The notes under the pieces are model-generated. The model was not told the DNA's origin and made no database searches. It saw only the letters and a program-made list of their open reading frames with translations. A stretch of DNA of 13,520 nt from Thermoplasmatota archaeon. GTDB taxonomy: Archaea > Thermoplasmatota > Thermoplasmata > Thermoplasmatales > Thermoplasmataceae. Made by a program: the position numbers and the translations under genes. Of this stretch, positions 1 through 13,482 are shown piece after piece; position 1 is the stretch's first letter, and each line of letters begins with the position of its first letter. The stretch is taken from positions 1 to 13,520 of the forward strand of contig JAMCUD010000049.1 of NCBI GenBank assembly GCA_023379355.1. Direction: 5' to 3'.

Positions 1-69
1 AAGAAAAGGTCCCGGAATGCATGCTCCTTGGACCAGTCCCTTATGATGTTTCTTGTCGTACTTCCTCAC
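1..69 (-). CDS. Possible start of a gene running off the left edge (partial)
   Basis: The operon clearly continues past the left edge, but the start of the next gene is ambiguous. The listed option begins at a GTG (69-67), overlaps the previous gene by 29 bases and stays open to the edge; its peptide contains KKHHKGLVQGACIPGPF. A second option is ATG at 22-20, preceded by AAGGAG with a spacing of only one base. A third frame is also open from a stop near 77 to the edge and reads naturally (RDWSKEHAFRDLF), but it has no ATG, GTG or TTG; an ACG at 59-57 lies nine bases after GAGG. Too little is visible to name a product. In secretion-type operons an ATPase often follows a small TM-hairpin gene, but nothing here demonstrates that. 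Confidence 0.25.
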   Translation of the reverse strand, partial: MRKYDKKHHKGLVQGACIPGPFL

Positions 70-889
70 CTCTCTTCTTAATCAGGGCATCGAGATACTG
101 GGGATTCTTCAGCAGCTGCTCAACCTCCTCCTCATATACCATGTTTTCTTCTTCAGTGAGCCTTTCCTTTCTCAGCACAGACATTATGCTGTCCTTATGG
201 GCAGATGTTATGGCCCCGATCAGTTCACGGGATTGCCTTGTTCCCTCTGTTATACTCTTAACATCTCCAGTCTGCTTGAGCTTTGCAACCTCCAGAAGCG
301 AATCCTTGAGCATTGTTGTTAGATCATCCAGCACGGACTGAAACATTGCATACTTTGCCCTGTTATAGTGTGCCCATGCAATATCCACAAACCACGGGAT
401 GCTGGATCCCTCCAGATATTTGATCTCAACGCACCAGTATGTGATCCTTCCATTGATTCTCCCGGATTCCAAAGTTAATCCTGTTTTCTTTTCCACCAAG
501 GACCAGATTTCATCAGAAATGAACATCCTCTCCCAATCCATGAAATCCGACGTTGGTACCATGATGAATACTCCATTCCTTGTCCTCAGTGTCTTTGAAT
601 AAAGATATATCATAGGCACATAGACAAGGACCGAGACCAGCGTGTATATAGAACCTACAAGATCGTATTCCACAAAGGCAAGAATACCGCCGATGATCAA
701 CTGGGGAAGCATTGCCTTTAACAGTGACCTGAAGGATACAAATCTCATGAGCCTTGAGATGTTCTCCCCTGATTTTGTCTGGAAAGCCTTTTTGAGTTCT
801 TCCCGTCTTTCTTCAGTGGTTTTCTGTGATTTTTCAAAGGCATTCTCTCTTCTCCTCTGCCAGAAACCCCTTCCCATTGCATCCTTCAT
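41..889 (-). CDS. TM-hairpin membrane protein with long helical cytoplasmic tail, unknown
   Basis: This 282-residue protein is not recognised as a named family. It has a basic, charged N-terminus (residues 1-57), two adjacent TM segments (about 59-73 and 78-97), a mixed domain (about 105-175) with aromatic motifs such as YWCVEIKYLE and WFVDIAWAHYN, and a charged helical, probably coiled-coil tail from about 175 to the end. Both termini should lie in the cytoplasm. The start is well placed: GGGAGGT lies nine bases upstream of the ATG, and the ATG overlaps the preceding stop (ATGA, 886-889), suggesting translational coupling. A TM pair near the N-terminus directly before another operon gene recalls PrgI/VirB3-type subunits of type IV secretion systems. 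That is a topology resemblance only, since those proteins are usually much shorter. Confidence 0.85.
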   Translation of the reverse strand: MKDAMGRGFWQRRRENAFEKSQKTTEERREELKKAFQTKSGENISRLMRFVSFRSLLKAMLPQLIIGGILAFVEYDLVGSIYTLVSVLVYVPMIYLYSKTLRTRNGVFIMVPTSDFMDWERMFISDEIWSLVEKKTGLTLESGRINGRITYWCVEIKYLEGSSIPWFVDIAWAHYNRAKYAMFQSVLDDLTTMLKDSLLEVAKLKQTGDVKSITEGTRQSRELIGAITSAHKDSIMSVLRKERLTEEENMVYEEEVEQLLKNPQYLDALIKKRGEEVRQETS

Positions 890-1752
890 ATTCGGATTAC
901 CTCCCTTCTTTCCTTCTCCAGGAGATATTTCCTGGCAGTGAACAGTGCAATGATGATTGCAAAAGCGGATGCAACAAATGCCCTTGCTATACCATATTCA
1001 TATTCTGAGAGGGTATATTCCAGGGCCGGAGGTTTCGGACCATAATATTTCTGGATGGGTATTGTTGCAATCAGTTCGTTGGGATATTTGTAGATCTGAT
1101 TTCCAAGACCTATGGTTACTGAAGCTTTGGATCCTGAGATATTGAAATTTACAGTTTTCGATCCAAAAACATATCCAGAATCTATCTCCTGGTTGTTCAC
1201 ATATACAGAGAATGTTTCATTGGAAGTGCTCTGCATTGATACATGCCAGTCGGGGTACATCAGGGCCCCGGATGTGCCTGGTGCGACAGTTAAAAACTGA
1301 TCCTGTCCAGAATATGACGATGAAACTGAGACTGACTGGATAACCCTGTTTGACAGTGGTCCGGTTATTATGTCCGAGAAGTGATAAGATACGCCTTGGA
1401 ATGTAAGTGTTGCATTGGCATATGATCCTCCCGGGATATTCCAAACATATGTGAAGTTGAAAACCCCAAGTGATACACCGGATTCAACCGTTGATCCATT
1501 TATTGAGAAATCGAAGCTCCCGGATCCATAAAGGTAGATATGCCAGTCCGGATAAACCTCCACTCCGGAAGAATTGACCGGCACGTAAAGATCCTGATTT
1601 TTCGAATTAAATGTTGAGTATACTGTGACATGGGGTGAGGGGGGTGTGGATGCATATGCCTCTGGCACCATTACAAGCCCAATAATCCCCAAAAGGATCA
1701 GCACTGGTATGATTTTACTTCCTGTCGTAAAATCTCCCCTCTTTTGCTTCAT
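886..1752 (-). CDS. Secreted, membrane-anchored protein with a duplicated beta domain
   Basis: The 288-residue product begins with a basic stretch (MKQKRG) and a hydrophobic signal segment (about residues 13-34, ending near AYA). Two tandem domains of roughly 95 residues follow (about 41-131 and 137-229). The duplication shows in the aligned motif YPDWH at 67-71 and 166-170, each preceded by a GQ/NQDxxLxVxP-like strand and followed by a VxxG strand pair. Several N-X-S/T sequons are present. A TM helix (about 254-274) and a short basic tail (RKYLLEKERREV) anchor it, leaving the domains outside the cell. The ATG at 1752 was chosen; an in-frame TTG at 1758 is possible, and neither has a convincing ribosome binding site. 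It overlaps the upstream gene by 38 bases. Likely a surface or assembly component; function unknown. Confidence 0.85.
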   Translation of the reverse strand: MKQKRGDFTTGSKIIPVLILLGIIGLVMVPEAYASTPPSPHVTVYSTFNSKNQDLYVPVNSSGVEVYPDWHIYLYGSGSFDFSINGSTVESGVSLGVFNFTYVWNIPGGSYANATLTFQGVSYHFSDIITGPLSNRVIQSVSVSSSYSGQDQFLTVAPGTSGALMYPDWHVSMQSTSNETFSVYVNNQEIDSGYVFGSKTVNFNISGSKASVTIGLGNQIYKYPNELIATIPIQKYYGPKPPALEYTLSEYEYGIARAFVASAFAIIIALFTARKYLLEKERREVIRI

Positions 1753-2023
1753 TTTCAACTCTTCTGAATGATCTGGATATGATCCTTCTCTTCAGATCAA
1801 CAAACCTGTTCCTGACCTTTGCCCTTACTCTCGAATTGCTTGCTGCCATTCCGAACATGACTATTCCGGATGTTGTGTTGTTTCCAACAGATCCGGACGA
1901 GGGGAAGAAGAACTTATGGAACATTCCCTCTATGGTTGGAAGAGTTAGGCCTAACCTGGTGAAGATCCACAACCCTATGATGATTACAATAATGGCCACA
2001 GCTGCATCGGTAATCTTTCCCAT
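1715..2023 (-). CDS. Small single-TM protein with basic C-terminal tail, unknown
   Basis: About 102 residues. The N-terminus carries a strong TM segment (TDAAVAIIVIIIGLWIF) followed by a semi-hydrophobic stretch (LGLTLPTIEGMFHKFFFP), a Gly/Ser/Asn linker, a weak second hydrophobic patch (SGIVMFGMAA) and a strongly basic tail (RVRAKVRNRF, RRIISRSFRR). I chose the ATG at 2023 because GGAGTGAT lies just upstream. A GTG at 2032 in the same frame is the alternative and would give a 4-base overlap with the stop of the PCNA-like gene. The C-terminus overlaps the start of the duplicated-domain protein. The architecture suits a small inner subunit of a membrane complex whose basic tail faces the cytoplasm; no family is recognised. 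Confidence 0.75.
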   Translation of the reverse strand: MGKITDAAVAIIVIIIGLWIFTRLGLTLPTIEGMFHKFFFPSSGSVGNNTTSGIVMFGMAASNSRVRAKVRNRFVDLKRRIISRSFRRVENEAKEGRFYDRK

Positions 2024-2028
2024 TTCAA

Positions 2029-3075
2029 TCACTCCATCCTTGGTGCAAGGAGACCCTGTGCCACTACCCTTTCGTTGTTTGGGCCAATTCTCCTGGTCAT
2101 AACATTTACAGGATAATCTTCCTTGAGATTCAGGGTTAGAGACATACCTTTATCTGACTTCACTGTCCTTCTTGCCATCATGGTTTTTATCATGGTTCCA
2201 AAAGGTTCCCGGCTGAAATTGGCAGTATGCCAGTTTCCATCGTTTGTGTAATCCCCGCTTGAAGGCTGTGCATTGATCTCCAGGATGGTCACTGTATTCT
2301 TGTCCGGGGAGTGTGAATCTTTAAGTTGTCTCTCCCTCCCTGCCTCTTTTTCATTAAACCCGGTCACCATGACCTTGTTGCCCTTCATCCTGAAAGTCAA
2401 TGTTTGGCTGAAGGGATCGTCCTTGGAAGACTTCTTCAGGAAATCCATGAGCTTCACCAGGTTACTTCCGTCTATCTGGGCCTTCCATGAATTGTTTTCA
2501 TAGTCCAGTTTAGGCATTTTGAATTTTGCAGCTGCTGGATCCACTCCGGATTCAAGTGTGAACCTTTTGTCCTCACCCTGCTCAATATGGTAGAAGCCAT
2601 CAGGAAGAGATGTGGGCAGAACTTCCTCAATCATCATTATGTGTGACGGATCAACGCTGGTGTAATGCATTTCTCCGTTTTCCACAGATAACCTTGCATC
2701 AATGAAAAAGTCCCTGAGCTGATCGTTCGACATCTGGAGTTTTCCATTCTCATTCAGGAGGCCCATGAGCTTCAATGCCTGTTCTTTTTCCTGTGTTATT
2801 GTGCCAATATGAGATTTGACATCTGGACTACTTGGTTCATTTGCCTCCTGAGCTGAAGGTGATGATACCGTTGGTGCAGGAAGAACTGACTCATAAGGGG
2901 CGTAAAGATCAAGGCGTGTGTTTGTCTCGATCAGTCTGGCCCTCTTTCCCTGCTCTCTTAACGATATAACATCTTCATATGCCAGATTCCTTGGAATACC
3001 ATAGGCCCTTTTTCTCCCGGTAATTGGCCTTGTTCTCCCCTCATCATCCTTGTAATATCCTCTTACTGCCGTCAT
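2029..3075 (-). CDS. Divergent PCNA-like sliding clamp with N-terminal extension
   Basis: The 348-residue product ends in LLAPRME, matching the classic PCNA C-terminus (LLAPRIE/YLAPKIE). It also carries the PCNA domain-1 signature in the order expected: a helix LRDFFIDARLSVENG followed by the strand-loop TSVDPSHIMMIEEVLP (VDPSH at 141-145), compared with the canonical AMDPSHVALV..LP. Near the end, FSREPFGTMIKTM, a SD.GMSLTLNL strand and YPVNV align with the YSxxYLxxMVK / SDEVxLxL / MPLKL pattern. The first ~95 residues are an added basic region (VRGYYKDDEGRTRPITGRKR) and a Pro/Ser/Glu linker. ATG at 3075 is favoured over an in-frame start at 3105 because GGAGGT sits seven bases upstream. PCNA rings tether polymerase, ligase and nucleases to DNA; whether this version still forms a ring is unknown. 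Family assignment is by motif only. Confidence 0.65.
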   Translation of the reverse strand: MTAVRGYYKDDEGRTRPITGRKRAYGIPRNLAYEDVISLREQGKRARLIETNTRLDLYAPYESVLPAPTVSSPSAQEANEPSSPDVKSHIGTITQEKEQALKLMGLLNENGKLQMSNDQLRDFFIDARLSVENGEMHYTSVDPSHIMMIEEVLPTSLPDGFYHIEQGEDKRFTLESGVDPAAAKFKMPKLDYENNSWKAQIDGSNLVKLMDFLKKSSKDDPFSQTLTFRMKGNKVMVTGFNEKEAGRERQLKDSHSPDKNTVTILEINAQPSSGDYTNDGNWHTANFSREPFGTMIKTMMARRTVKSDKGMSLTLNLKEDYPVNVMTRRIGPNNERVVAQGLLAPRME

Positions 3076-3076
3076 T

Positions 3077-3433
3077 TCATTTACCTCCAATTCTTTTCTT
3101 TCCACCCTGATTGAAACCTTTCAAATCAGAATAAAATACAGAAGCTGCTTCTTTCCCATTCCTGTAAAAACTCACGGATTCCTCTCCAACGTAGACCTGA
3201 TCTATGTCAGAAAGCCTCATTCCATTAACGCTGAAATCCTTCTTCTTACCGGTAAATTCAAAAGGATCGTCGTCACTGTTCTCAAACCCACAGGATCTTA
3301 CAACTTTCCCGATTTTTTCAGGTGGCCATTTTAGAAGATCTCTGGTTGTTACTCTTCTCTGTACAGAGAAACTCTTCTTCTTAATGGGGATGACCTGCTT
3401 TTTTCCATTCCTCTTAACAATTCGATATTCCAT
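3077..3433 (-). CDS. Small basic protein with KRNGKKQ N-terminal module, unknown
   Basis: A 118-residue protein beginning MEYRIVKRNGKKQVIPIKKK. The start is fixed by GAGGAGG nine bases upstream. The N-terminal ~35 residues closely resemble the start of the next gene upstream (MSYITIKRNGKKQ...) and more weakly the start of the PCNA-like protein downstream. A second copy of the pattern may occur inside the protein at about residues 87-104 (VSFYRNGKEAASVFYSDL). There are no TM segments, one Cys, and an acidic patch (NSDDDPFEF) in the middle. It lies two bases after the ATG of the PCNA-like gene begins downstream and four bases from its upstream neighbour, so it is co-transcribed. Function not recognised; the basic character suggests nucleic-acid or membrane-surface binding, which is inference. 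Confidence 0.8.
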   Translation of the reverse strand: MEYRIVKRNGKKQVIPIKKKSFSVQRRVTTRDLLKWPPEKIGKVVRSCGFENSDDDPFEFTGKKKDFSVNGMRLSDIDQVYVGEESVSFYRNGKEAASVFYSDLKGFNQGGKKRIGGK

Positions 3434-3437
3434 AATC

Positions 3438-3767
3438 TCATTCCTCCTCAAAATTGCCCTTTGCAACATAGGAGATATCAGAATCAATAACCCGTTCCAT
3501 CCTCTCGTTTCCCTGGTATTTTGTCCTGAGAATGGAGAGTTCAGCCATTGTGTCCCCCTTACCATATTTGGCTACGGCCTTTTCCAGTGCCTTCTTCCTC
3601 AGTCCGTCAGCGAGATCCAGAGCATAGCCGGCCAGTGAAAGACCGTGGATATGGATCTTCTTCAGGTCTGCTGCTTTCAACACCTTTGTTGGAACGTAAG
3701 ACCTCTTTTTCCTGTCAAGGTTCACTGCCTGCTTTTTTCCATTTCTTTTAATTGTAATATAACTCAT
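3438..3767 (-). CDS. Small basic protein with KRNGKKQ N-terminal module, unknown
   Basis: A 109-residue protein starting MSYITIKRNGKKQAVNLDRK. AAGGAGG lies five bases before the ATG, and the ATG overlaps the stop of the 40-residue gene upstream (ATGA, 3764-3767). The N-terminal module is shared with the neighbouring 118-residue protein: aromatic residue, hydrophobic pair, KRNGKKQ, then a run of Lys/Arg, then a hydrophobic/TxxL helix start. The rest is helical and charged (ADLKKIHIHGL, LADGLRKKALEKAVAKYG) with an acidic C-terminus (GNFEEE). No TM segment or catalytic motif is visible. I do not recognise a family. The two modular proteins next to a clamp-like protein suggest a shared adaptor or targeting segment. 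Confidence 0.8.
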   Translation of the reverse strand: MSYITIKRNGKKQAVNLDRKKRSYVPTKVLKAADLKKIHIHGLSLAGYALDLADGLRKKALEKAVAKYGKGDTMAELSILRTKYQGNERMERVIDSDISYVAKGNFEEE

Positions 3768-3886
3768 TTCTTCCTCCTTGGCTTGAATCCGTAAACTGTT
3801 CCATTCTTCACGTATGCGAACATTCCCTTTGGCACGCTGACCTTTCCAAGTGCTTTTTTCTGATTTCCCGACCTTTTCTTTACCAT
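3764..3886 (-). CDS. 40-residue basic protein, unknown
   Basis: A short gene found by reading the - strand just upstream of the 109-residue protein. The start peptide is MVKKRSGNQKKALGKVSVPK and the end is VYGFKPRRKK; the middle (GMFAYVKNGTVYGF) reads like a small beta-hairpin. AGGTGA lies a few bases before the ATG, and the stop overlaps the next ATG (ATGA), the same coupling used elsewhere in this operon, which is the main evidence that it is real. The YVKNG...PRRKK pattern loosely echoes the KRNGKKQ module of the next two genes. It is strongly basic with no TM segment. A small nucleic-acid-binding or structural role is plausible but unproven. Confidence 0.6.
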   Translation of the reverse strand: MVKKRSGNQKKALGKVSVPKGMFAYVKNGTVYGFKPRRKK

Positions 3887-3967
3887 TTTTCACCTTTTTT
3901 TATTTTATTTGATTAAATTTCCTCCCAAAGGGGAGTTTTAAACATTTTATGCAAATATTATGATAGA
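3887..3967 (-). promoter_or_regulatory. Intra-operon gap with possible TATA box and short hairpin
   Basis: This AT-rich ~80-base stretch is the only real break in the leftward operon. On the - strand it has two TATA-like elements, GTTTAAAAC (3943-3935) and AAATTTAATC (3920-3911), either of which could start a transcript just before the ATG at 3886. Between them is a small perfect hairpin CTCCC-CTTT-GGGAG (3935-3922). No long T-run follows it on the - strand, so a terminator is not convincing. A second promoter for the clamp-containing half of the operon is the best guess. Confidence 0.3.
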
Positions 3968-4078
3968 TCATCTCCTCCTGGGAGTCTTCTTTCCCTTTGT
4001 GGATCCTTTCTTCTTCCTCACTGGAGTTCTCTTTTTTGTACCCTTTTTTGAAACCGTTCTTATCACCTCCTTTTTCAT
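3968..4078 (-). CDS. 36-residue Lys/Arg-rich peptide
   Basis: The - strand reads MKKEVIRTVSKKGTKKRTPV, then a Lys/Arg-rich end finishing KGKKTPRRR and a TGA at 3970-3968. Eighteen of the 36 residues are Lys or Arg, giving a protamine-like or ribosomal-tail-like composition. The ATG overlaps the stop of the giant protein (ATGA, 4075-4078). An excellent ribosome binding site, GGAGGTGAT (4070-4062), lies inside the first codons; the only start-like codon at ideal spacing from it is ACG at 4057-4055, so translation may begin at a non-standard codon instead. It probably binds nucleic acid or acidic polymers. It could also be a fortuitous reading frame, but the overlap and strong binding site argue against that. 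Confidence 0.5.
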   Translation of the reverse strand: MKKEVIRTVSKKGTKKRTPVRKKKGSTKGKKTPRRR

Positions 4079-7000
4079 TTTATCTTCCTGCCTTTCAGTT
4101 GTATTCTCTTTGTCTTCTTGCCGGAACCCTCAACAATGGTCACATTGGGATTATCGGTCCTTCTCAGTGAAGCCCATGCAATCACCAGGCCGCCAAGGGT
4201 CAGCATTGTAATGAGAAAATTCGACATTCCACCGAAAAATGATATGAGATCTCCCAGGTTGAAACTTGAAGATGAATATGCTGAAGAGACTGCGAATGGT
4301 ATGGTCAAATGATTGGATGCCGAGTTGTTGTTGAATACTACTATCTGGATTCCGTAAGTACCTGATGTGTAGTCCCTCTGATCCATTGTAATGTTGAAGT
4401 AAGCCAATTCTCCTGCAGATGTATATGTGGAATTGATCTCTGGCGCAGTCAGCTCTGTAGTTCCAAGGAAAGCTTCCATTGCTTCTATGCCCCCTATTGA
4501 CTGGACCTTGACGGTAAAATAACTCATTGGGCCTACAGTATTTTTTGTGTAGGATATGGCAATGCTGCTGTTTGTTCCCTGTGGCAGGACCTGGATATCA
4601 CGTGTAAGGGATGCTGATGCACCAAGCCCATCCGTAACCGTGAGACTTACAGAGTAATTGCCCGGTTGATCGAAATAATAGAGCTGGCTTTGCCCGGCAT
4701 AAGCCGTACCATTTATGTCCCAGGAATATGTGAATGAGGAAGAATCTGGAGCTGTTGCACTGGCATTAATGGAAAGCATTGTGTCCACTGGTATGATTGA
4801 TGGAGGGCTGAACCTAACTGATGGAATTGCCGGGACCATACGTATTGTGAGATATTGTGTCCACTGCTTTCCAGAATCATATGAAAATGTTGCAATAACA
4901 GTGTTCAATTCCGTATAAACAGGAAATTTGTATGATATGTTCATTCCCGTAATGGTCTGGCCGTTGGGGAATGACCATGACATGTTGTAAGGGCCAGCAG
5001 CATCCCAGTTTGGAATCGCTTTGAATTGAAATGCCTGGGTGATATTCAGTTTGGTAGAATAGTCAAAACTGACTGGGGCAGGTAGACTTTGGATTGATAA
5101 GTTGTCCTGTCCAGTTGCACCGTTGGAGCTTGTAACAGTGAAATGGACCGTATAATTTCCTACAGGGAACTGGTATATAGGGTTCTGTAAAAGGGAATGA
5201 TGTCCTGGAGAGAAGGTCCAGTTGTAGCTGTAACCTGAGCCCCCGAGGACTGAGGATGAGAACTGCACCGTAAGAGGACTAGGTCCAGAGGTCTGGTTTG
5301 CAGCTATGGCAACGTACAGATGCACGTTGACAGTAAAATTCTGTATGTCCGTATATCCTGATGAATCGGTAATTCTCGCTTCAAAGGTATTGGGGCCAGA
5401 TGAGGAAAATGCAAATGTTATGTTATTTCCCGAAAATTGTTCTCCTCCAGGGAAATACCACTGGATACTGTAGGGAGCTATTCCCCCGGTAACGTTCAGG
5501 AATAGGGGCTCTTCCTCTGCCGCTACAACGTAGTTTGGTCTTACCAGGTAAGCATGAGGATCCGGATAAACTGTCTCGTTGACATTGCCAGTTGCCTCCC
5601 TTCCAAATGAATCGGTAACAGTTAGTTGGACATCGTATTTACCAGAAGATATGAAAGCGTGTGTCAAGGTTTCATTTGAATATGTATTTCCACCAATTAA
5701 CCAGGAATAACTGTAAGGGCCGGTTCCACCGGAAAGAACACCCCTGAACTGGATTGGGACGTTCATATCAGTTCTATTTGACGGTGTCACAATAGTAACT
5801 GATGGATTTTCCCTCACAACAATATTTGTGGAGAGAAATATGCTCTCTCCTGATGAATCGTTAACATATGCCGTCACATGGTATGTACCTGGTGAACTGA
5901 AATACTGAGAATAAGAATAGGAAGTTGACACAATCTTTCCATCAATAAATATTGAATATGTGTAATGCCCGGTTCCATTGGATGCAGCCAGAGAAATATT
6001 GTCCGTTATATTCTCATCCACTGTTGGATATTCAGTCGAGAGAGTTGCTGAAAGTTCCGAATTAACATCTATGCTGACAGAATATGAAGCACTAGAACCA
6101 AGAGAATCTGTAACCTTGAGGGTGATTGCATAAGATCCTTCGTTGGAAAAAGAGTAGGTCAAATTACTGGATGAAGATACGACATTACCGTCAATTTCCC
6201 ATGTATATATGTAGGGAGAAGTACCCCCGGAAATGTTTGAAATGAACGTGTCTTTTTGGCCAGCATCAATTGAACTGTTCTCCCCTGTTATTGAGACTGA
6301 TAAGACTGTATTCACAGTTATGTTCTCAAAAACACTTCCTGTTATGTTGAAGGAATCTTTTACGGTTAGTCCTATTTCATAAGTTCCAGGTGAAGAGAAG
6401 GTAGTGGACAATGATGATCCATAACCTGAAGTGGCACCATTTATGGTCCATGAATAGTTGTATGGACCAGTTCCTCCTGTTATCCCGGAAAGGAACGAGA
6501 TGGCCATTCCAGTATCTATTAGGGTTCTATTGGCAAATATAACTGGTACCGGTCCAGAATTCACATCGATTGTTATGAATGACGATGCTGTATTTCCCCC
6601 GGTATCTCTTAGAATTGTCTTAACCAGGTATGATCCAGAATTGTTGAACGCGTATTGCATTAAGGAACCATATCCTGTTATCTTCCCATTGATCTCCCAT
6701 GTATAGTTATAGGTGGGGGTTCCAAATTCTCCCGTAGCAGTGAATGTGTCAGTTACACCCGAGTCGAGAGATGAATATCTGGCGGATATTGAGACTGAAG
6801 GAAGGGGGTTTACAGTTATGTTTGATTCAACCTGCGCGGTATTTCCTGAGAAGTCGGTAACTCTCAGCATTACAGTAATAGTTCCTTGAGAACTGAAAGT
6901 GTATGTCAGATTGGGCTGTGATCCTACCTGAGTGTTGCCCACAAACCACTGGTAGATCAATGGGTCTGAACCTCCTGACACTGAAGAGTGGAATATGTCG

Positions 7001-10000
7001 GTAAAACCTAGGTCACCCTGAGATTTTGCTGCTGTTATAGTGGCGGACGGCTTTGCATGAACAATCACTTGGAGATAGGATGATGCCGATGCCTCTTCTG
7101 AATCTACCGCTTTTATTGAGACGTTATACGTGCCGGGTGATGTAAATGAGTATTCAAGGTAGAGTCCTGATGACGACGATGTAACATTAATTCCATTCAC
7201 ATACCAGTAGAAGTTGTACGGTTCAGTGCCGTAAGTTGCATTTCCCGTGAATATTGCAGAGGTGTCGATATCTGTTTTGTCCGGCCCATTAATGGAAACA
7301 GAAGGTTTTGTGATAACGGAAACCGGGAAAGTATAGTTTGAGGTCATTCCAAGCGCATCCTGCACCTCAATTCTGATGTTATGAGTACCAGTTGAACTGA
7401 ACGACATGTGAAAATTCTGGGAGTAGTTTACAATGACGTTTCCAGAATACCAGGTGTAATTGAATGGGTAAGTCCCTCCATGAACATTGGCAGTGAAGGT
7501 GTCATTTATTCCCTGGTCTATTGAACCATACTCCGAGCTTATTGTTACTGACGGATCGGCATTTACAGTCTCAGTAACATTTGCAGATGCCCTGTTTCCA
7601 TTGGAATCAACAATATCCAGTACAACCGTAAATGCACCTGAGGAATCAAAGGTATAGGTGAATGACGGGTTGTATGAGATAATTACTGAGTTAATTTCCC
7701 ATGTATAATTGTAAGGAGATGTGCCGCCTTTCACGGAAGAAGTGAAGGAAACCGGAACACCTACATCAGTTGGATTTGGAGAATATGATATAGATACTGA
7801 TGGATCGGGATTAACAGTTTCCTTGTAAGTGTAGGAGGCTTTATTTCCGATACTGTCGATTGCGGTCACATTTACATAATATGGGCCTGGGGAACTGAAC
7901 GAAGTGCTGAATTCATCCGATGTTGAGGACTGGGTAGCTCCGTTCAGGTACCACTGGTATGAGAAGGAACCGGTCCCCTTTGATGCTGATGCAGTGAATG
8001 TGACAGAATTTCCAACATCAGTGGGATTCTGCGAACTGGTTATTGAGACTGAAGGATCGGGATTCACAGTCTCGGTAACGGTTGAAGAAGTAACCTTGTC
8101 TCCCAGTGAATCCGATAATACCACATAAATGGTTGGAGTCCCAGAATAGGAAAATGCTGTTGTGAATGTTGAACTTGTGGATCCGGATACGGCAGTCCCA
8201 TTCAGGTACCACTGGTATGCGTATGATCCTGTTCCTGCAGAACCGGTTGCTGTAAAAGTGATGGAATTCCCAATGTCAGTTGGATTCTGCGAGCTTGCTA
8301 TGCTCACTGACGGGTCGGCATTAATGGTCTCATCCAGCGTTGACGACTGGGCAGAATTTCCAACATTATCATGGATAATCACATAGAAATCCTCTGTTCC
8401 TGACGAGCTGAAAGAAGTGGTATATGTGGATGATGTTGCACCGCTTATTGCATTGCTATTCTCATACCACTGGTAAGAATATGATCCAGAACCCCCTGAT
8501 GGTGAAGCAGTGAGTGTAACGTTATTCCCAACATCAGTAGGATTCTGTGAACTAGATATGGTAACTGAGGGATCGGAATAGACCGTTTCTGTTATGGAAG
8601 AGGATGCAGTATGACCATCGCTGTCAGTTACAATCACTTTGACAGTGTAGGAACCCGGAGAACTGAATGAATAATCCAACGTTGAACCAGATCCATCCGA
8701 TGCACCGTTGACATACCATTCATAGGATATGGTCCCTGTGCCTCCGCTCTCCGATGCAGTAAAGGTAAGAGAATTGCCTACATCGGTTGGATTCTGTGAA
8801 CTGGATAAGGATACTGACGGATTGTTGTTGATTGTGACCGTCACAGACGCAGAATATGTTTCGCCTATGCTGTCAGTAACTGTTATTTCCACTGTGTAGG
8901 TACCAGCATTAGAGAACGAATATGAGAAATCCTGTGAAGTTGATTCCTGAGTACCCCCTATCGTCCAGGAATATGTATATGGAGACGTACCGCCGGAAGG
9001 AGATGAAGAAAACTCGATAGGGTAGCCTACATCCGCACTACTGACGTTGGATGATGCTGATACAGTGGGATCAGAATTTACGGTTTCAGAAATTGTATTT
9101 GAATTAACAGTATAGTCCGCTCCGTCAGTTACAGCAACATAATAATCGTAGGTTCCCGAAGAGGAATACGACCCAGGAGAGTAAGTTGACCCAGTAGCAC
9201 CGCTTATTGCATTACCGTCTTCATACCACTGGTATGAATACGATCCAGTACCACCGGATGCGGATGCAGTTAATGTTATAGATTTTCCAACATCGGTAGG
9301 GTTTTGTGAACTTGATATGGATACTGATGGATCAGAATTTACGGTCTGTGTAAGGGAAGTTGAACTTGTGTATCCGTTTGAATCTGTAACGGAATAATCA
9401 AGAAGATATGATCCAGTGCTGCTGAATGTGTATGAAAATGACGAGGTCGATCCAGATGCTAACTGGGAATCGGATGTTGAGGTACCATCGTACAGGACAT
9501 AAGAATAGCTCGTATAAGAACCAGTACCACCTGATGCACTTGTGCTGAAATCTATGGTTTGTCCAGTATCAGATGGATTTCTACTGGAACTGATTGATAT
9601 AGAAGGATCGGAATCTACTGTTACAGTTATGGTGTTGGAATTGACCGAATAGCCATTGCTATCAGTCAACTTGAGATAATAAGATGTTGTTCCTGTAGGT
9701 GAGGCAGAATAAGATGAGGATGTTGCACCGGAAATTGCTGAGCCTCCTGCATACCACTGATATGAATATGTCCCGGTTCCACCAGATTCACTGGATGTGA
9801 AGCTGACAGACTGACCGGTATCTAAGGATGTCCTTGAAGCTGATATGGCTACTGTTGGATCAGATACAACGCAGACTATCTCCCCATTTTCTGTTCCGTA
9901 TGTCCCATCACTATCACTTATTTCCACCCCAACTTCGAATGACCCGGTTGAACCCGGTGTCCAAGAGTTTGAAGAACTTGAACTGTGGTCGTAATAGTAT

Positions 10001-10290
10001 GTGGTAGAACTTACTGAAGTCTCAGGGTCATTGGTGATGCTTAAACTCTGCCCAATGTCCAGATATGTGGCAGATACATGTGCATCATCAGTAAAAGATG
10101 ATTCAGTCCCGAATGAAGTATAATCATAAGTAAAAGAGAAAGTGGCACTATATGACCCCTCATCAGGGGTAGCAATAGCACCTGAACCGTTGGGATTCCA
10201 CTGGCTTAATGCCTCAAACCCCATAATACCGACACCAGAAAATATCATTATCGCCGCGAAACCCAGTGCAAACAGTACTTTTTTGTTCAT
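4075..10290 (-). CDS. Giant membrane-anchored surface protein with ~21 PKD-like repeats
   Basis: A 2071-residue protein. GGTGAT lies five bases from the ATG, and the N-terminus is a classic signal peptide (MNKKVLFALGFAAIMIF). Residues ~25-144 form an N-terminal region with a partial repeat (YLDIGQSLSITND). Residues ~145-1902 hold about 21 tandem beta-sandwich units of ~84 residues with the pattern DPSVSI..., D[VI]G.S.TFTAS, GGTGSYSYQWY.NG, FSSxGxYxVxxxVTDSxG and TETV. The WDFGDG loop of textbook PKD domains is absent, replaced by the Y.Y.W motif, so PKD-like is safest. A unique C-terminal domain (~1903-2010), one TM helix (~2020-2042) and a basic cytoplasmic tail (KKTKRIQLKGRKIK) follow. It likely forms a long extracellular stalk or adhesin. 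Ser/Thr content is very high and only one Cys was noticed. No enzyme motif is visible. Confidence 0.93.
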   Translation of the reverse strand: MNKKVLFALGFAAIMIFSGVGIMGFEALSQWNPNGSGAIATPDEGSYSATFSFTYDYTSFGTESSFTDDAHVSATYLDIGQSLSITNDPETSVSSTTYYYDHSSSSSNSWTPGSTGSFEVGVEISDSDGTYGTENGEIVCVVSDPTVAISASRTSLDTGQSVSFTSSESGGTGTYSYQWYAGGSAISGATSSSYSASPTGTTSYYLKLTDSNGYSVNSNTITVTVDSDPSISISSSRNPSDTGQTIDFSTSASGGTGSYTSYSYVLYDGTSTSDSQLASGSTSSFSYTFSSTGSYLLDYSVTDSNGYTSSTSLTQTVNSDPSVSISSSQNPTDVGKSITLTASASGGTGSYSYQWYEDGNAISGATGSTYSPGSYSSSGTYDYYVAVTDGADYTVNSNTISETVNSDPTVSASSNVSSADVGYPIEFSSSPSGGTSPYTYSWTIGGTQESTSQDFSYSFSNAGTYTVEITVTDSIGETYSASVTVTINNNPSVSLSSSQNPTDVGNSLTFTASESGGTGTISYEWYVNGASDGSGSTLDYSFSSPGSYTVKVIVTDSDGHTASSSITETVYSDPSVTISSSQNPTDVGNNVTLTASPSGGSGSYSYQWYENSNAISGATSSTYTTSFSSSGTEDFYVIIHDNVGNSAQSSTLDETINADPSVSIASSQNPTDIGNSITFTATGSAGTGSYAYQWYLNGTAVSGSTSSTFTTAFSYSGTPTIYVVLSDSLGDKVTSSTVTETVNPDPSVSITSSQNPTDVGNSVTFTASASKGTGSFSYQWYLNGATQSSTSDEFSTSFSSPGPYYVNVTAIDSIGNKASYTYKETVNPDPSVSISYSPNPTDVGVPVSFTSSVKGGTSPYNYTWEINSVIISYNPSFTYTFDSSGAFTVVLDIVDSNGNRASANVTETVNADPSVTISSEYGSIDQGINDTFTANVHGGTYPFNYTWYSGNVIVNYSQNFHMSFSSTGTHNIRIEVQDALGMTSNYTFPVSVITKPSVSINGPDKTDIDTSAIFTGNATYGTEPYNFYWYVNGINVTSSSSGLYLEYSFTSPGTYNVSIKAVDSEEASASSYLQVIVHAKPSATITAAKSQGDLGFTDIFHSSVSGGSDPLIYQWFVGNTQVGSQPNLTYTFSSQGTITVMLRVTDFSGNTAQVESNITVNPLPSVSISARYSSLDSGVTDTFTATGEFGTPTYNYTWEINGKITGYGSLMQYAFNNSGSYLVKTILRDTGGNTASSFITIDVNSGPVPVIFANRTLIDTGMAISFLSGITGGTGPYNYSWTINGATSGYGSSLSTTFSSPGTYEIGLTVKDSFNITGSVFENITVNTVLSVSITGENSSIDAGQKDTFISNISGGTSPYIYTWEIDGNVVSSSSNLTYSFSNEGSYAITLKVTDSLGSSASYSVSIDVNSELSATLSTEYPTVDENITDNISLAASNGTGHYTYSIFIDGKIVSTSYSYSQYFSSPGTYHVTAYVNDSSGESIFLSTNIVVRENPSVTIVTPSNRTDMNVPIQFRGVLSGGTGPYSYSWLIGGNTYSNETLTHAFISSGKYDVQLTVTDSFGREATGNVNETVYPDPHAYLVRPNYVVAAEEEPLFLNVTGGIAPYSIQWYFPGGEQFSGNNITFAFSSSGPNTFEARITDSSGYTDIQNFTVNVHLYVAIAANQTSGPSPLTVQFSSSVLGGSGYSYNWTFSPGHHSLLQNPIYQFPVGNYTVHFTVTSSNGATGQDNLSIQSLPAPVSFDYSTKLNITQAFQFKAIPNWDAAGPYNMSWSFPNGQTITGMNISYKFPVYTELNTVIATFSYDSGKQWTQYLTIRMVPAIPSVRFSPPSIIPVDTMLSINASATAPDSSSFTYSWDINGTAYAGQSQLYYFDQPGNYSVSLTVTDGLGASASLTRDIQVLPQGTNSSIAISYTKNTVGPMSYFTVKVQSIGGIEAMEAFLGTTELTAPEINSTYTSAGELAYFNITMDQRDYTSGTYGIQIVVFNNNSASNHLTIPFAVSSAYSSSSFNLGDLISFFGGMSNFLITMLTLGGLVIAWASLRRTDNPNVTIVEGSGKKTKRIQLKGRKIK
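4585..9858 (-). repeat. Tandem array of ~21 PKD-like repeat units (~250 bp each)
   Basis: Coding repeats inside the giant gene. Units 3 and 5-8 (within about 7.8-9.3 kb) are most alike and share the phrase SSQNPTD[VI]G; unit 9 carries NPTDVG. At DNA level a matching block (on the + strand, TCAGTNGGATTCTGYGARCT) recurs near 8011, 8269, 8525, 8774 and 9285, about 250-258 bases apart or a multiple of that. Units further toward the C-terminus (lower coordinates) are well diverged. The pattern suggests recent duplication or gene conversion in the N-proximal part. Confidence 0.9.
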
Positions 10291-10300
10291 GCAGCATCAC

Positions 10301-10612
10301 CTAAACGAAAGATCCAACAACCGGAGTGTCCTTGGCCATTGAGAATATAATCAGTCCTGAACCTATTACCACTGTAGTTCCGATTAAAAACACTGGAAGA
10401 GCGAAAGGGCCAAGAGATATTGAAGTCTGGATAAACATCCTGACAGTATCCTGGAACACTGACATTATGAGACTGAATATCCCTTCTATTGCCAGCTGGA
10501 TCGAATAAAGTATCTCCGAGAACCAGTATAGAATTATTGCCTCCACATTCTTGATTGCATCGAATGGATTCAACCATGACAGGAGTGATGGAGGTTTTAC
10601 GCCATATGCCAT
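10301..10612 (-). CDS. Small membrane protein, third of a paralogous trio
   Basis: A 103-residue protein whose ATG directly follows the stop of the gene before it (TAAATG), with GGTGGG just upstream inside that gene. A Pro-containing N-terminus leads into a long amphipathic/hydrophobic helix (~19-63: IILYWFSEILYSIQLAIEGI...), then a TM helix (~69-91) and a short tail with AKDTPVVG. The C-terminal pattern, an aromatic residue and Pro at the start of the TM helix (LGPFALPVFL) and a KD...VxG tail, is shared with the two genes upstream, so I read the three as diverged duplicates. Small size, two hydrophobic helices and tandem copies fit pilin-like (VirB2/TrbC type), channel or virion membrane proteins; sequence alone does not decide. 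Confidence 0.85.
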   Translation of the reverse strand: MAYGVKPPSLLSWLNPFDAIKNVEAIILYWFSEILYSIQLAIEGIFSLIMSVFQDTVRMFIQTSISLGPFALPVFLIGTTVVIGSGLIIFSMAKDTPVVGSFV

Positions 10613-10870
10613 TTATCCCACCACGTCCTTTGCTCCGCTCAGGAATACGAAAACTACCAAGAGGCCTGCAATGGTAATACCTGTAACCGCTACAAGAAGA
10701 GCAGGAATCCAGGGTCCGAATCCTGTAAATGACTGTGCCCATGAGTACATCAGCAATGATACCTTTCCTCCGAACCAATTCATTTCGATTTCCAGGTCCG
10801 CTTCCAGTGATCCAATAAGGGATGTGAAGAATGAAAGAAGGATCGTAAGAATACTGGGAGTAGAGCTCAT
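10613..10870 (-). CDS. Small membrane protein, second of a paralogous trio
   Basis: An 85-residue protein with a short hydrophobic helix (~6-20: SILTILLSFFTSLIG), an amphipathic region (~24-48: LEIEMNWFGGKVSLLMYSW) and a TM helix (~55-77) starting at GFGPWIPALL and ending in SGAKDVVG. The GxW-x-P start and KDV.G tail match the 133-residue protein upstream (GYGVWAPVM ... AEKDVTG), supporting a duplication. AGTGATC lies a few bases before the ATG. A competing long frame across 10287-10880 is an overlapping artefact: its peptide lacks TM character and would span two well-behaved membrane genes. Likely a multi-copy subunit of a membrane assembly. Confidence 0.85.
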   Translation of the reverse strand: MSSTPSILTILLSFFTSLIGSLEADLEIEMNWFGGKVSLLMYSWAQSFTGFGPWIPALLVAVTGITIAGLLVVFVFLSGAKDVVG

Positions 10871-10889
10871 GATTGATCACTTAAACCCC

Positions 10890-11291
10890 TCAAAGATCAG
10901 TTTCAAACCCGGTTACATCCTTCTCAGCATCTATCACTGTGAATAGGAGATATCCCACAAGAATAGCAACACCAAGACCAACCACGAACATTACCGGTGC
11001 CCATACTCCATATCCCTGCATACTGAAGCCAAAGGATTGGAACATGATAACAACCGATTGTCCGAACCCGGACATCATCTGACCGAACATGTTTCCAAGA
11101 CCGTTTGAAATGCTCTTGAACAGTGAAAGTATCACTCCCCACAAACCGGTGAATATTGATGACCCGATTGATGAAGACGAAACGTATGGGACAAAAAGAA
11201 GTGCCGGAAATACTGCCTTGATCCTAGCTTTCTTTAGAATCTTTGAAAGCTTTGTTATGAAAGATTTCCTGAAGCCTTTCATGGTTATCAT
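10890..11291 (-). CDS. Small membrane protein, first of a paralogous trio
   Basis: A 133-residue protein with a very basic N-terminus (FRKSFITKLSKILKKARIK), a signal-like hydrophobic segment (~27-37) followed by small residues, a Gly/Met/Phe-rich amphipathic stretch (~46-92, including NGLGNMFGQMMSGFGQS) and a C-terminal TM helix (~97-120) beginning GYGVWAPVMF and ending DAEKDVTG. The ATG overlaps the upstream stop (ATGA, 11288-11291) with GGGAGGT eight bases before it; a second ATG three codons in is possible. The basic-plus-hydrophobic N-terminus could be a cleaved signal, leaving two hydrophobic helices as in VirB2-type pilins. This is a topological comparison, not a demonstrated homology. 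Confidence 0.87.
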   Translation of the reverse strand: MITMKGFRKSFITKLSKILKKARIKAVFPALLFVPYVSSSSIGSSIFTGLWGVILSLFKSISNGLGNMFGQMMSGFGQSVVIMFQSFGFSMQGYGVWAPVMFVVGLGVAILVGYLLFTVIDAEKDVTGFETDL

Positions 11292-12505
11292 GCCTTTTTA
11301 CCTCCCTTTGCAGGAGCAGAACCAAAAGCATGGATATCGATGTCGTAAACAGAGATCTCTATGAATGCACTGGCAAACAGAAGTACTGCGCCGAGAAGAT
11401 ATGTTACCTGCATGACCGGATATGGACCGAATACCGTGACAAGGCCATTGTTTCCATATGTGTTTACAGTAATGCTCATGGAGGTCACATTGGCAGTAAT
11501 CTCCATTGTGACAGGGGATGACTGGTTACCGGTAAGCAGCTGAGGAGATATGGCCAGTTTTACTGAAGTCCCATTAATGGTTGATACAGAAGCTATTGGT
11601 ATGAACTTTGTAGAGTTAGTTCCAATGCCCATGGTGACATTGACGTTTCCTGAATCAGTTGTATCCAGGATTATTTTTGAGACTGCAAAATTATTCAGTT
11701 CGCCCAAAGTTAGGTTAGTTTCCTGATATACTGTATGGGAATAGGTAGTGGTGTTGTTTGCAGTCACTGAAGGAAAATCGAATGTAGTGGTGCCGTTAAC
11801 CTGGCCAAAAGGTATGGGGCCAGATGATCCTGTAATGTATAATGTTGCACTTTCATCCGCAAGAACGTGAGAGCTGTCATGCCCAGATACAAAGAGGTTT
11901 CCCAGGCCTGCACCAATGGGTACAATGAGCAAGGCAACAAGGAATATGATCAGAAGAGCAAGCATCCCCCTCGATCCCTTGGATGTTCCTGATTCTGACC
12001 TTGTAAGAACTGTGGTTCCTTTTCCTTTCTGGCCTCTGAACCCATGCTTATGTGCCCATGCTGCATTCCATGTAACAGCAAGTCCAGATATCAATACGGA
12101 TATCAAAAAGAGAAGCGCATCCGGATTTCCGTTGAATGCAGGATTTATGACAAACTTACCAAAGTTGAAGAGATATCCCAGTAGCCCACCGATGAATGCA
12201 CCTATGATAAATGCCGGGATTATTCTTACCAGGAGATCTTCAATGGACCTTCCAGGTGGTGTGAAGAATTCCACTATTGCCCAGACTATTGCTCCCATCA
12301 GGACAGCTGGAGCAACTATGCCCTGCGTTAGCACAACAGTATGATTCATAACAACAAACTGTGGTTTAGATAAGAGTGATATCAGAAGTAGGAATGTGCC
12401 AAATAGTGCTACAATAACTGCACCAAGGGACCAGTTTGGATTATTCCATTTCGGCTTTCCATCTTTCGCATTCGATTTCTTAGAACTTTTACTTTTTGCA
12501 GACAT
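11288..12505 (-). CDS. Six-TM membrane protein with glycosylated outer domain, first gene of the operon
   Basis: A 405-residue protein. A basic cytoplasmic N-terminus (~1-26) precedes TM helices at about 27-46, 62-82, 94-113, 129-150 and 180-202. An extracellular beta-rich domain (~207-362) follows with at least eight N-X-S/T sequons, then a last TM (~366-386) and a short tail ending GGKKA. The start is the ATG preceded by GGAGG at five bases; the frame extends upstream to 12622, but that stretch encodes a non-protein-like peptide and contains the leader hairpins. Gly-rich helices (IPAFIIGAFIGGLLG) suit a channel or scaffold. By position and topology it could play the role of VirB6- or CedA-type proteins in DNA-transfer systems; no sequence match is claimed. 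As first gene it is likely controlled by the leader. Confidence 0.88.
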   Translation of the reverse strand: MSAKSKSSKKSNAKDGKPKWNNPNWSLGAVIVALFGTFLLLISLLSKPQFVVMNHTVVLTQGIVAPAVLMGAIVWAIVEFFTPPGRSIEDLLVRIIPAFIIGAFIGGLLGYLFNFGKFVINPAFNGNPDALLFLISVLISGLAVTWNAAWAHKHGFRGQKGKGTTVLTRSESGTSKGSRGMLALLIIFLVALLIVPIGAGLGNLFVSGHDSSHVLADESATLYITGSSGPIPFGQVNGTTTFDFPSVTANNTTTYSHTVYQETNLTLGELNNFAVSKIILDTTDSGNVNVTMGIGTNSTKFIPIASVSTINGTSVKLAISPQLLTGNQSSPVTMEITANVTSMSITVNTYGNNGLVTVFGPYPVMQVTYLLGAVLLFASAFIEISVYDIDIHAFGSAPAKGGKKA

Positions 12506-12549: not shown

Positions 12550-12586
12550 AGCTTAACGGAAATGGCTTCCGCTTCTCCGTTAAGCT
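12550..12586. repeat. 11-bp perfect inverted repeat in the divergent intergenic region
   Basis: AGCTTAACGGA (12550-12560) and TCCGTTAAGCT (12576-12586) are exact reverse complements separated by 15 bases. Relative to the leftward TATA box, the repeat would lie right at the 5' end of the transcript, so it could act as an operator for a dimeric repressor or as an mRNA hairpin. Its right arm and loop, read on the - strand, include CGGAGAAG, a near-copy of the CGGAGGAAG complement of the anti-binding-site strand. Confidence 0.6.
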
Positions 12587-12659: not shown

Positions 12660-12681
12660 GGGTATTTAGAATATGTTATAC

Positions 12682-13176
12682 ATGAGCGAGAATTTAGAGG
12701 AATTCTTGGATATAGCTTCAGAACCAGAGAAAATAGCTATTTTATTTATTGGATATTCAAATGAGGTAAAATCAACACGCTTGCAAAAAATGGTTCTAGT
12801 TGCCAAAGCATTATTAGAAGGCAAAGTTCCTTCGAGCCATGGTGCCTATATGTTTGGAGGATATTCTGATGATATCGATGAAGGCACTGAAACTTTAAGA
12901 TCTGAGGGATTTTTAAGCTACTGGGCAGGAAAGGGCTATTATCTATCTAATGATGGAAAAAAATTATTTGAGTCTTTAAAGGAGAAAGAACCGAAGCTCA
13001 ATGATACTGTTCAGAAAGTCTCAGAGATGTTCAAGGGGTTATCAGATAAGCAAGTCACTGCTATAACCTACAAACTCTTTCCACAATTGACTGAAAACTC
13101 AGTTATTAAAGAAGAAATGGAAAAGATTGGAGACAAAATAAATATAGAAACTTTCAAAATAAATATTAAATCGTAG
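12682..13176 (+). CDS. YwgA-like winged-helix protein, possible regulator
   Basis: A 164-residue soluble protein; an in-frame ATG at 12673 adds three residues. ATG at 12682 is preferred because a TATA-like box sits about 26 bases upstream. The pattern TRLQKMVLVAKALLEG, then YMFGGYSDDIDEGTETL, SEGFL and GYYLSNDGKKLFESL matches what I recall of YwgA-type and phage-associated DUF4065-like proteins (RLQKL.Y.A, FYGPYS.EL, L...G.., Y.LT..G), an all-helical/winged-helix fold. The C-terminal part (~115-164) is helical. Its position opposite the large operon, with a palindrome between, makes a regulatory role plausible but unproven. The DNA is clearly more AT-rich than the leftward operon. Confidence 0.7.
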   Translation: MSENLEEFLDIASEPEKIAILFIGYSNEVKSTRLQKMVLVAKALLEGKVPSSHGAYMFGGYSDDIDEGTETLRSEGFLSYWAGKGYYLSNDGKKLFESLKEKEPKLNDTVQKVSEMFKGLSDKQVTAITYKLFPQLTENSVIKEEMEKIGDKINIETFKINIKS

Positions 13177-13185
13177 GACAATGAG

Positions 13186-13482
13186 ATGGCTGTTGAAAAA
13201 CGAAAGCATCTAGGGGTTGAAGCCGGACTTGACCGCATTGGATTCGATTATTCTGCAAACCTTATTCAGGAAGTCGTTGCAGTTGCGGTTGGGGAGATGA
13301 AGATATTAAATCATCCAGATGGCAAAGGATTTTCAATAGTTACGAGGATTGACATCAGGACATTTACTATAATAACCAAAAGATATGTGAAGGATGGTAT
13401 AATAAAGCATGGTTTTAAGGTATTAAGTGAAGTTACCGAATATAAGGATGATGGGGTGTATTTGAATGGCAGGAAATTATGA
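13186..13482 (+). CDS. 98-residue soluble protein, unknown
   Basis: It starts nine bases after the winged-helix gene and is surely co-transcribed. It begins MAVEKRKHLGVEAGLDRIGF, followed by a likely helix (NLIQEVVAVAVGEMKIL) and then four or more beta strands with alternating hydrophobics (FSIVTRIDIRTFTIITKRYV, KVLSEVTEYKDDGVYLNGR). There is no TM segment, signal or Cys. An alpha-plus-beta fold is suggested; no family is recognised. A small partner to the YwgA-like protein, for example as a two-gene regulatory or toxin-antitoxin-like pair, is possible but nothing in the sequence shows toxicity. Confidence 0.75.
   Translation: MAVEKRKHLGVEAGLDRIGFDYSANLIQEVVAVAVGEMKILNHPDGKGFSIVTRIDIRTFTIITKRYVKDGIIKHGFKVLSEVTEYKDDGVYLNGRKL

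What the first reader, a model, noticed from the sequence alone, without database searches (positions are those of the whole stretch)
41..12505. Long single-strand operon: candidate undescribed envelope machine coupled to a DNA clamp
About 14 adjacent genes on one strand, mostly overlapping or within 20 bases, combine a six-TM protein, three paralogous small membrane proteins, a giant PKD-like stalk, tiny Lys/Arg-rich proteins, two proteins with a common N-terminal module, a PCNA-like clamp and three further membrane proteins. Surface/membrane parts sharing an operon with a clamp-like protein suggests moving or packaging DNA across the envelope (conjugation-like transfer or a virus/plasmid-virus element). 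The missing piece is an ATPase, which could lie just past the left edge.
Basis: partly seen in the sequence, partly recalled or inferred. Interest (0 to 1): 0.7.

Follow-up and report, generated by a model that had tools for sequence, protein, structure and literature searches.

The report
Archaeal provirus operon with DNA clamp
This stretch looks like the structural-gene block of a so far undescribed family of viruses that sit in the genomes of acid-loving Thermoplasmata archaea, and unusually it carries a sliding-clamp protein, normally a replication part, among its surface and membrane genes.

The parts
11288..12505 (-). gA: 405-aa six-TM protein with an ectodomain between TM5 and TM6; two separate genes in distant relatives
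10890..11291 (-). gB: 133-aa membrane protein, candidate major coat protein; C-terminal part highly conserved
   Evidence: 76 homologues, alignment A2, 16 of 400 class genomes
10613..10870 (-). gC: 85-aa paralogue of gB
   Evidence: hhalign 98.7% to gB family
10301..10612 (-). gD: 103-aa probable paralogue of gB
   Evidence: hhalign 83.1% to gB family
4075..10290 (-). gE: 2071-aa PKD-repeat stalk with signal and C-terminal TM, candidate spike/adhesin
3764..3886 (-). gF: 40-aa, 33% Lys+Arg
3438..3767 (-). gG: 109-aa basic protein, N-terminal K-R-N-G-K stretch
3077..3433 (-). gH: basic protein with a similar N-terminal stretch
2029..3075 (-). gI: PCNA-fold sliding clamp with an extra N-terminal module of about 90 aa
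   Evidence: start codon
1715..2032 (-). gJ: 105-aa single-TM protein (start may be 2023)
886..1758 (-). gK: 290-aa signal - ectodomain - C-terminal TM
41..889 (-). gL: 282-aa protein with two adjacent TMs and a soluble C-terminal part; followed in most relatives by dM, dN and the ATPase

Best explanation
The window is the virion-assembly (structural) operon of an integrative virus (provirus) of Thermoplasmata, related to the spindle-shaped archaeal viruses. Shown here: conserved gene order; in relatives, integrative elements with integrases and tRNA or att junctions, a Zot/B251-type ATPase next to the operon, and in two of them fusellovirus VP2; in the window, a PCNA-fold clamp (by model). 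Inferred: gB, gC and gD are coat proteins stored in the host membrane; gA, gK and gL are membrane or portal parts; gE is the receptor-binding stalk; gG and gH are genome-binding virion proteins; the ATPase beyond gL drives DNA into particles that leave through the membrane without lysis. The clamp gI, among the small basic proteins, most likely rides on viral DNA and ties replicated DNA or host replication enzymes to assembly.
For: Gene order gA-gB-(gC)-gD-stalk-(gG/gH/gI)-gJ-gK-gL-dM-dN-ATPase recurs, with local variations, across loci. A B251/Zot-type ATPase follows gL in 13 loci: G001, G070, G094C79, G115C29, G072C180, G072C63, G080C63, G136C26, G136C24, G100C25 (two genes on in these ten), G069C46, G082C26, G168C16. 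ATPase kinship: LSV-48N tblastn E 2e-17, hhalign 99.6%; fusellovirus B251 97.2%; His1 84.2%; family HMM finds LSV-48N E 1.9e-36 and SSV-Lassen E 3.8e-12; Pfam Zot above its cut-off in 4 of 7 family members scanned; Foldseek top match is a Zot N-terminal domain, E 2e-4. Pfam Fusello_VP2_Capsid in two relatives' operons (E 1.6e-16, 2.2e-8), and in P0038 (E 2.6e-19), which also carries gI's N-terminal module. G070 element: 29,431-base period, a 51-aa int fragment at its left end, intact int across the copy junction. Integrase 3' ends overlap tRNA-Pro, tRNA-Lys and tRNA-Ser at three loci. Precedent: the genome map legend of the spindle-shaped Thaspiviridae names a PCNA gene (PMC8491892).
Against: No particle is known. 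gB, gC and gD match no SSV VP1/VP3, His1 or LSV-48N protein by profile, and gB's profile finds no convincing solved structure (best E 0.28). Six IMG/VR scans found no relative. VP2 homologues also occur in the unrelated phage IN93 (PMC4158269), and pleolipovirus His2 is among the organisms hit by the ATPase at E up to 10, so neither gene proves a spindle shape. The ATPase was not seen in the window's own contig, nor was VP2 found in the window. The ATPase model also matches RecA, RuvB and RFC, and VIA ranks those, not Zot. One relative, G080C48, has no such ATPase in the fetched stretch.
Confidence: 0.78

Rival explanations
1. A conjugation-like (T4SS/Ced-type) DNA-transfer element: gA as CedA/VirB6-like channel, gB-gD as two-helix pilins, gE as mating adhesin, with an ATPase.
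For: Ced consists of a 6-7 TM CedA, CedA1 and CedA2 with two TMs each, and an ATPase CedB (PMC9905601, passages read); gA has six TMs and gB-gD are small membrane proteins.
Against: A Walker-A scan of the two bounded elements shows the Zot/B251-type ATPase and, in G070, MCM; three further pattern matches are in the stalk, in gG and in an antisense ORF and look like chance. No VirB2/TrbC family among the Pfam hits listed for the 56 gB members. Fusellovirus VP2 lies in sister operons. Relaxases were not searched for systematically.
Confidence: 0.08
2. A pleomorphic (pleolipovirus-like) membrane-vesicle virus or plasmid-vesicle element rather than a spindle-shaped virus: a similar ATPase, membrane proteins and a spike, but no ordered coat.
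For: His2 is among the organisms hit by the ATPase at E up to 10; no homology to spindle-virus coat proteins; a large spike plus membrane proteins fits.
Against: Closest named ATPases found are LSV-48N and fuselloviruses; VP2 is a fusellovirus family. Pleolipovirus spike and membrane proteins were not compared directly.
Confidence: 0.12
3. A domesticated surface or adhesion operon, not mobile; the clamp is a chance neighbour.
For: The clamp is absent in 8 of 17 readable loci and 9 of 117 order genomes have a gL match.
Against: Sporadic distribution, several divergent copies per genome (G070, G072, G080, G136), integrases and att junctions, decayed copies such as G080C22. The clamp label is clustered on trees (11 of 500 shuffles as low for gB; 0 of 500 for gK).
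Confidence: 0.02

Closest known systems
Haloferax lemon-shaped virus LSV-48N (PP151251.1; PMC12714723)
   Same: ATPase family (35% identity over 112 aa, E 2e-17; hhalign 99.6%); integrated and circular forms and no lysis as reported there (passages); large proteins next to small membrane proteins
   Different: None of its 17 other tested proteins passes 22% in profile comparison; it has a DUF7845 protein, while G070 and G100C25 have MCM; no clamp named in its annotation
Fuselloviridae (SSV1 and kin)
   Same: B251-type ATPase; VP2 DNA-binding virion protein in two relatives; tyrosine integrase with the att site inside the int gene (G070)
   Different: No VP1/VP3 homologue found; the fusellovirus genomes fetched are 14.8-16.3 kb against 29-35 kb; the G070 int is cut only near its 3' end, so it is not clearly a suicidal SSV-type integrase; giant PKD stalk; clamp
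Thaspiviridae (NSV1)
   Same: Spindle-shaped virus with a PCNA gene in its map legend and an 81-aa predicted coat protein with two hydrophobic helices (passages of PMC8491892)
   Different: Linear genome (abstract in listing) with protein-primed polymerase; its sequence was not in the collection under the accession I tried, so no homology test was made
Zot / filamentous-phage assembly ATPase (phage role recalled)
   Same: Pfam Zot above cut-off in 4 of 7 family members; best Foldseek match
   Different: No TM in the element ATPase; zinc ribbons at the C terminus
Ced/Ted DNA-import system
   Same: A six-TM protein plus small membrane proteins, in number and kind
   Different: No VirB4-type ATPase in the bounded elements; sequence homology not found but weakly tested

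Membership tests
PCNA/sliding clamp fold (gI) | full two-half clamp fold | tested here: met
PCNA/sliding clamp fold (gI) | ring assembly on DNA and PIP-box partner binding | not testable with these tools
   needs biochemistry
Fuselloviridae | B251-type ATPase | tested here: met
   in relatives, not in the window: hhalign 97.2%, HMM hits on SSVs
Fuselloviridae | VP1/VP3 coat proteins | tested here: not met
   no profile match for gB, gC, gD (A2 against VP1 0.9%; best window family against VP1 is gJ at 11.9%)
Fuselloviridae | VP2 DNA-binding virion protein | tested here: inconclusive
   present in 2 of 17 loci plus one weak match (E 0.24); none found in the window
Fuselloviridae | SSV-type integrase split by integration | tested here: inconclusive
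   G070: att within the int 3' end, 51-aa fragment at the left end, the rest of the gene is not split
Fuselloviridae | spindle-shaped virion | not testable with these tools
   no particle
T4SS / Ced conjugation-like systems | VirB4/CedB-type ATPase | tested here: not met
   Walker-A scan of two bounded elements in relatives: only MCM (G070) and the Zot/B251-type ATPase, besides chance matches
T4SS / Ced conjugation-like systems | VirB2/CedA1-type pilin | tested here: inconclusive
   no VirB2 family in the Pfam scan of 56 members and no such PDB sequence hit; structures were not compared
T4SS / Ced conjugation-like systems | relaxase | not tested
   not every element protein was scanned against Pfam
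Zot-domain ATPases | Zot domain above Pfam cut-off | tested here: met
   4 of 7 family members scanned (P0202, P0215, P0220, P0233); P0115 and P0232 below it; P0159 not among the 25 rows shown
Pleolipoviridae | spike and membrane protein homologues | not tested
   no record compared

The most novel reading that the evidence does not exclude
A major unrecognised virus lineage of Thermoplasmata builds its particle from a new coat-protein family (gB/gC/gD) and uses a captured PCNA clamp, joined to a virion-type DNA-binding module, as part of its nucleoprotein or assembly gate: the clamp rides the viral DNA into assembly, coupling replication to extrusion through the membrane.
Probability: 0.25. 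Interest if true: 0.85.

Novelty: new variant of a known kind. Interest (0 to 1): 0.62.

Why it matters
A 2018 review says no archaeal viruses had been isolated from mesophilic acidic environments, though spindle and rod particles were seen by microscopy at Iron Mountain (PMC6336744, passages). A sliding clamp kept in a structural operon would be a new way to link genome replication to particle assembly. It also gives a new coat-protein candidate family with 76 homologues.

Tried and rejected
Tried without result: Pfam, PHROGs and NCBIfam for most window proteins; tblastn of gA, gL and gI against phages and of gA against plasmids; six IMG/VR scans; profile comparison of 13 families with 41 fusellovirus, LSV-48N and His1 families (533 pairs: three ATPase pairs stood out; next gJ-His1 MCP at 28.8% and an ATPase zinc-ribbon match at 21.4%, taken as noise). 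CRISPR spacers: one DNA search of the window in 117 genomes listed no match that I took for a spacer, but at most 2 candidates per genome were scored, so it says nothing. VIA on the ATPase gives RuvB, RecA and RFC ties and lists no Zot chain among its 50 rows. No mapped stretch begins and ends with the same 15 to 300 bases, but several stretches are parts of longer contigs. The plus-strand ORF 12673-13176 has a homologue in G065 on a contig without element genes, so I left it out of the operon. Rejected: full paralogy of gC and gD by direct comparison (5.5%); conjugation as the leading reading.

Readable loci are therefore 17, not 18, and the gK tree was rebuilt without that row.

Literature: arCOG02242, a 'viral packaging ATPase ... 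typical for Fuselloviridae', and gp37 genes were already noted in the E-plasma genome (PMC10354927, passages). My searches listed no paper whose title or abstract start describes these elements; only open-licence papers are held and I read passages, not whole papers.
Full report
1. Observation. The window encodes 12 tightly packed minus-strand genes between 41 and 12505. I name them gA to gL in transcription order. The giant gene gE is a true PKD protein. No other window protein I scanned has a convincing Pfam, PHROG or NCBIfam match, apart from a partial sliding-clamp match of gI.

3. Relatives. No whole genome is held for the window. A genome-contig scan with gA gave two loci, one inside a 556-kb contig (G001). 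A search with gL in the order of G001 matched 9 of 117 genomes. A search with the gB profile matched 16 of 400 genomes of the class. The weakest rows of both are near the threshold. Proteins: 38 relatives of gI, 76 of gB, 146 of the ATPase, best 120 listed. G100 holds a 95,943-base contig, the length given for the contig of a gB homologue labelled Thermoplasma sp. Kam2015.

4. The missing ATPase. I mapped 28 stretches, the window included. A Zot/B251-type ATPase follows gL in 13 loci: two genes on in ten; after more genes in G069 and G082; and in G168 dN and the ATPase are one protein. A different P-loop protein sits there in G040, G163 and the second G070 element (no gL was detected in the last). 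G080C48 has no such ATPase in the fetched stretch. G080C22 is decayed. G080C32 has lost gB-gK, leaving one gA-gL ORF, but keeps the ATPase. The window and G079C16 end too early. The ATPase is the strongest link to known viruses: LSV-48N (tblastn E 2e-17; hhalign 99.6%; HMM E 1.9e-36), fuselloviruses (97.2%; SSV-Lassen E 3.8e-12), His1 (84.2%). Pfam calls Zot above its cut-off in 4 of 7 family members scanned, and the model's best Foldseek match is a Zot N-terminal domain at E 2e-4, though the core also resembles RecA, RuvB and RFC. No other family of the element passed 29% in 533 comparisons.

5. Mobility. In G070 a 29,431-base unit is followed head-to-tail by a second copy that runs off the contig end. 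The copy junction carries an intact integrase gene, and the left end of the first copy starts with the last 51 codons of that gene; the junction core occurs only at these two places in the held genome. So a circle or tandem form exists, or the assembly ran round one. In G001 the operon lies between two integrase genes 83% alike in DNA. The first overlaps tRNA-Pro and the repeat includes the tRNA end, giving an interval of 35,261 bases. In G072C180 and the decayed G080C22, integrase 3' ends overlap tRNA-Lys and tRNA-Ser. MCM helicases occur in G070 (both elements) and G100C25, none of which has the clamp.

6. The clamp's place. In 17 loci the stretch from the stalk gene to gK can be read. The clamp is there in 9: window, G136C26, G136C24, G001, G094C79, G072C180, G072C63, G080C63, G079C16. 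It is absent in 8: both G070 elements, G163, G168, G082, G040, G080C48, G100C25 (the latter with all HMM filters off). Outside this count, G069 has a short clamp-tail match behind its ATPase (E 1.2e-18). On a tree of 16 gB rows the label needs three changes (11 of 500 shuffles as low). On a tree of 15 gK rows, without the split G070 gene and the cut G163 gene, it needs one (0 of 500), with weak support, 32/85. So the clamp is clustered by kinship, with at least one likely loss in G070. In the second G070 element the clamp position, and in G040 a place two genes further on, hold a fusellovirus VP2 protein (Pfam E 2.2e-8 and 1.6e-16); G080C48 shows a weak one (E 0.24). An SSV-only VP2 profile finds the first two as well. 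A database protein, P0038, has a VP2 domain followed by gI's N-terminal module. [quoted passage not shown] From this I infer, without proof, that the gG/gH/gI position is for genome-binding proteins.

7. Mechanism (inferred). Coat-like membrane proteins, a stalk with signal and membrane anchor, small basic proteins and a Zot-type ATPase fit assembly at the membrane with non-lytic release, as described for NSV1 (PMC8491892) and LSV-48N (PMC12714723, passages; section 8 read). The clamp could recruit host polymerases to element DNA, or hold replicated DNA at the assembly site. Thaspiviridae give a precedent for a PCNA gene in a spindle virus, but I could not compare sequences.

8. Membership and novelty. 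It is not a fusellovirus by the VP1/VP3 test. Its relatives share the ATPase with fuselloviruses, LSV-48N and His1, and two share VP2 with fuselloviruses. A fusellovirus-type packaging ATPase was noted before in the E-plasma genome (PMC10354927), but the listings I searched showed no description of these elements. Hence a new variant of a known kind, with a coat-protein candidate family and a clamp placement that deserve testing.

9. Limits. The window's own contig was not seen beyond its edges. Virion, excision and function are untested. Gene starts are judged by eye from ribosome sites. Counts of loci rest on the contigs I chose to fetch from the matches, not on a complete survey.

Noticed in passing
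window 12550-12586: Perfect 11-base inverted repeat (12550-12560 and 12576-12586) between gA and the divergent gene: operator-like, upstream of the operon.
   Followed up: partly
window 12673-13482: Two plus-strand ORFs in a GC-poor stretch (35%); the first has a 73% identical homologue in G065 on a contig without element genes.
   Followed up: partly
L002 6890-8848: A DUF5131 (gp37/gp68) gene interrupted by an intein with a LAGLIDADG domain, inside the G001 element.
   Followed up: no
L029 2226-3500: One 424-aa ORF joining part of gA to part of gL: a deletion derivative that has lost the structural genes between them but keeps dM, dN and the ATPase.
   Followed up: no
L020 9997-10859 (G070 element): gK is split into two ORFs (127 and 124 aa) in both copies of the G070 element, so this copy may be decaying.
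   Followed up: no
L004 7026-10097; L034 2980-5718: Type ISP-like restriction-modification protein in the G001 element and an N6 methylase protein in the G072C180 contig, probable cargo.
   Followed up: partly
L045 3335-3703: A short clamp C-terminal-like ORF behind the ATPase of G069C46 (E 1.2e-18).
   Followed up: no
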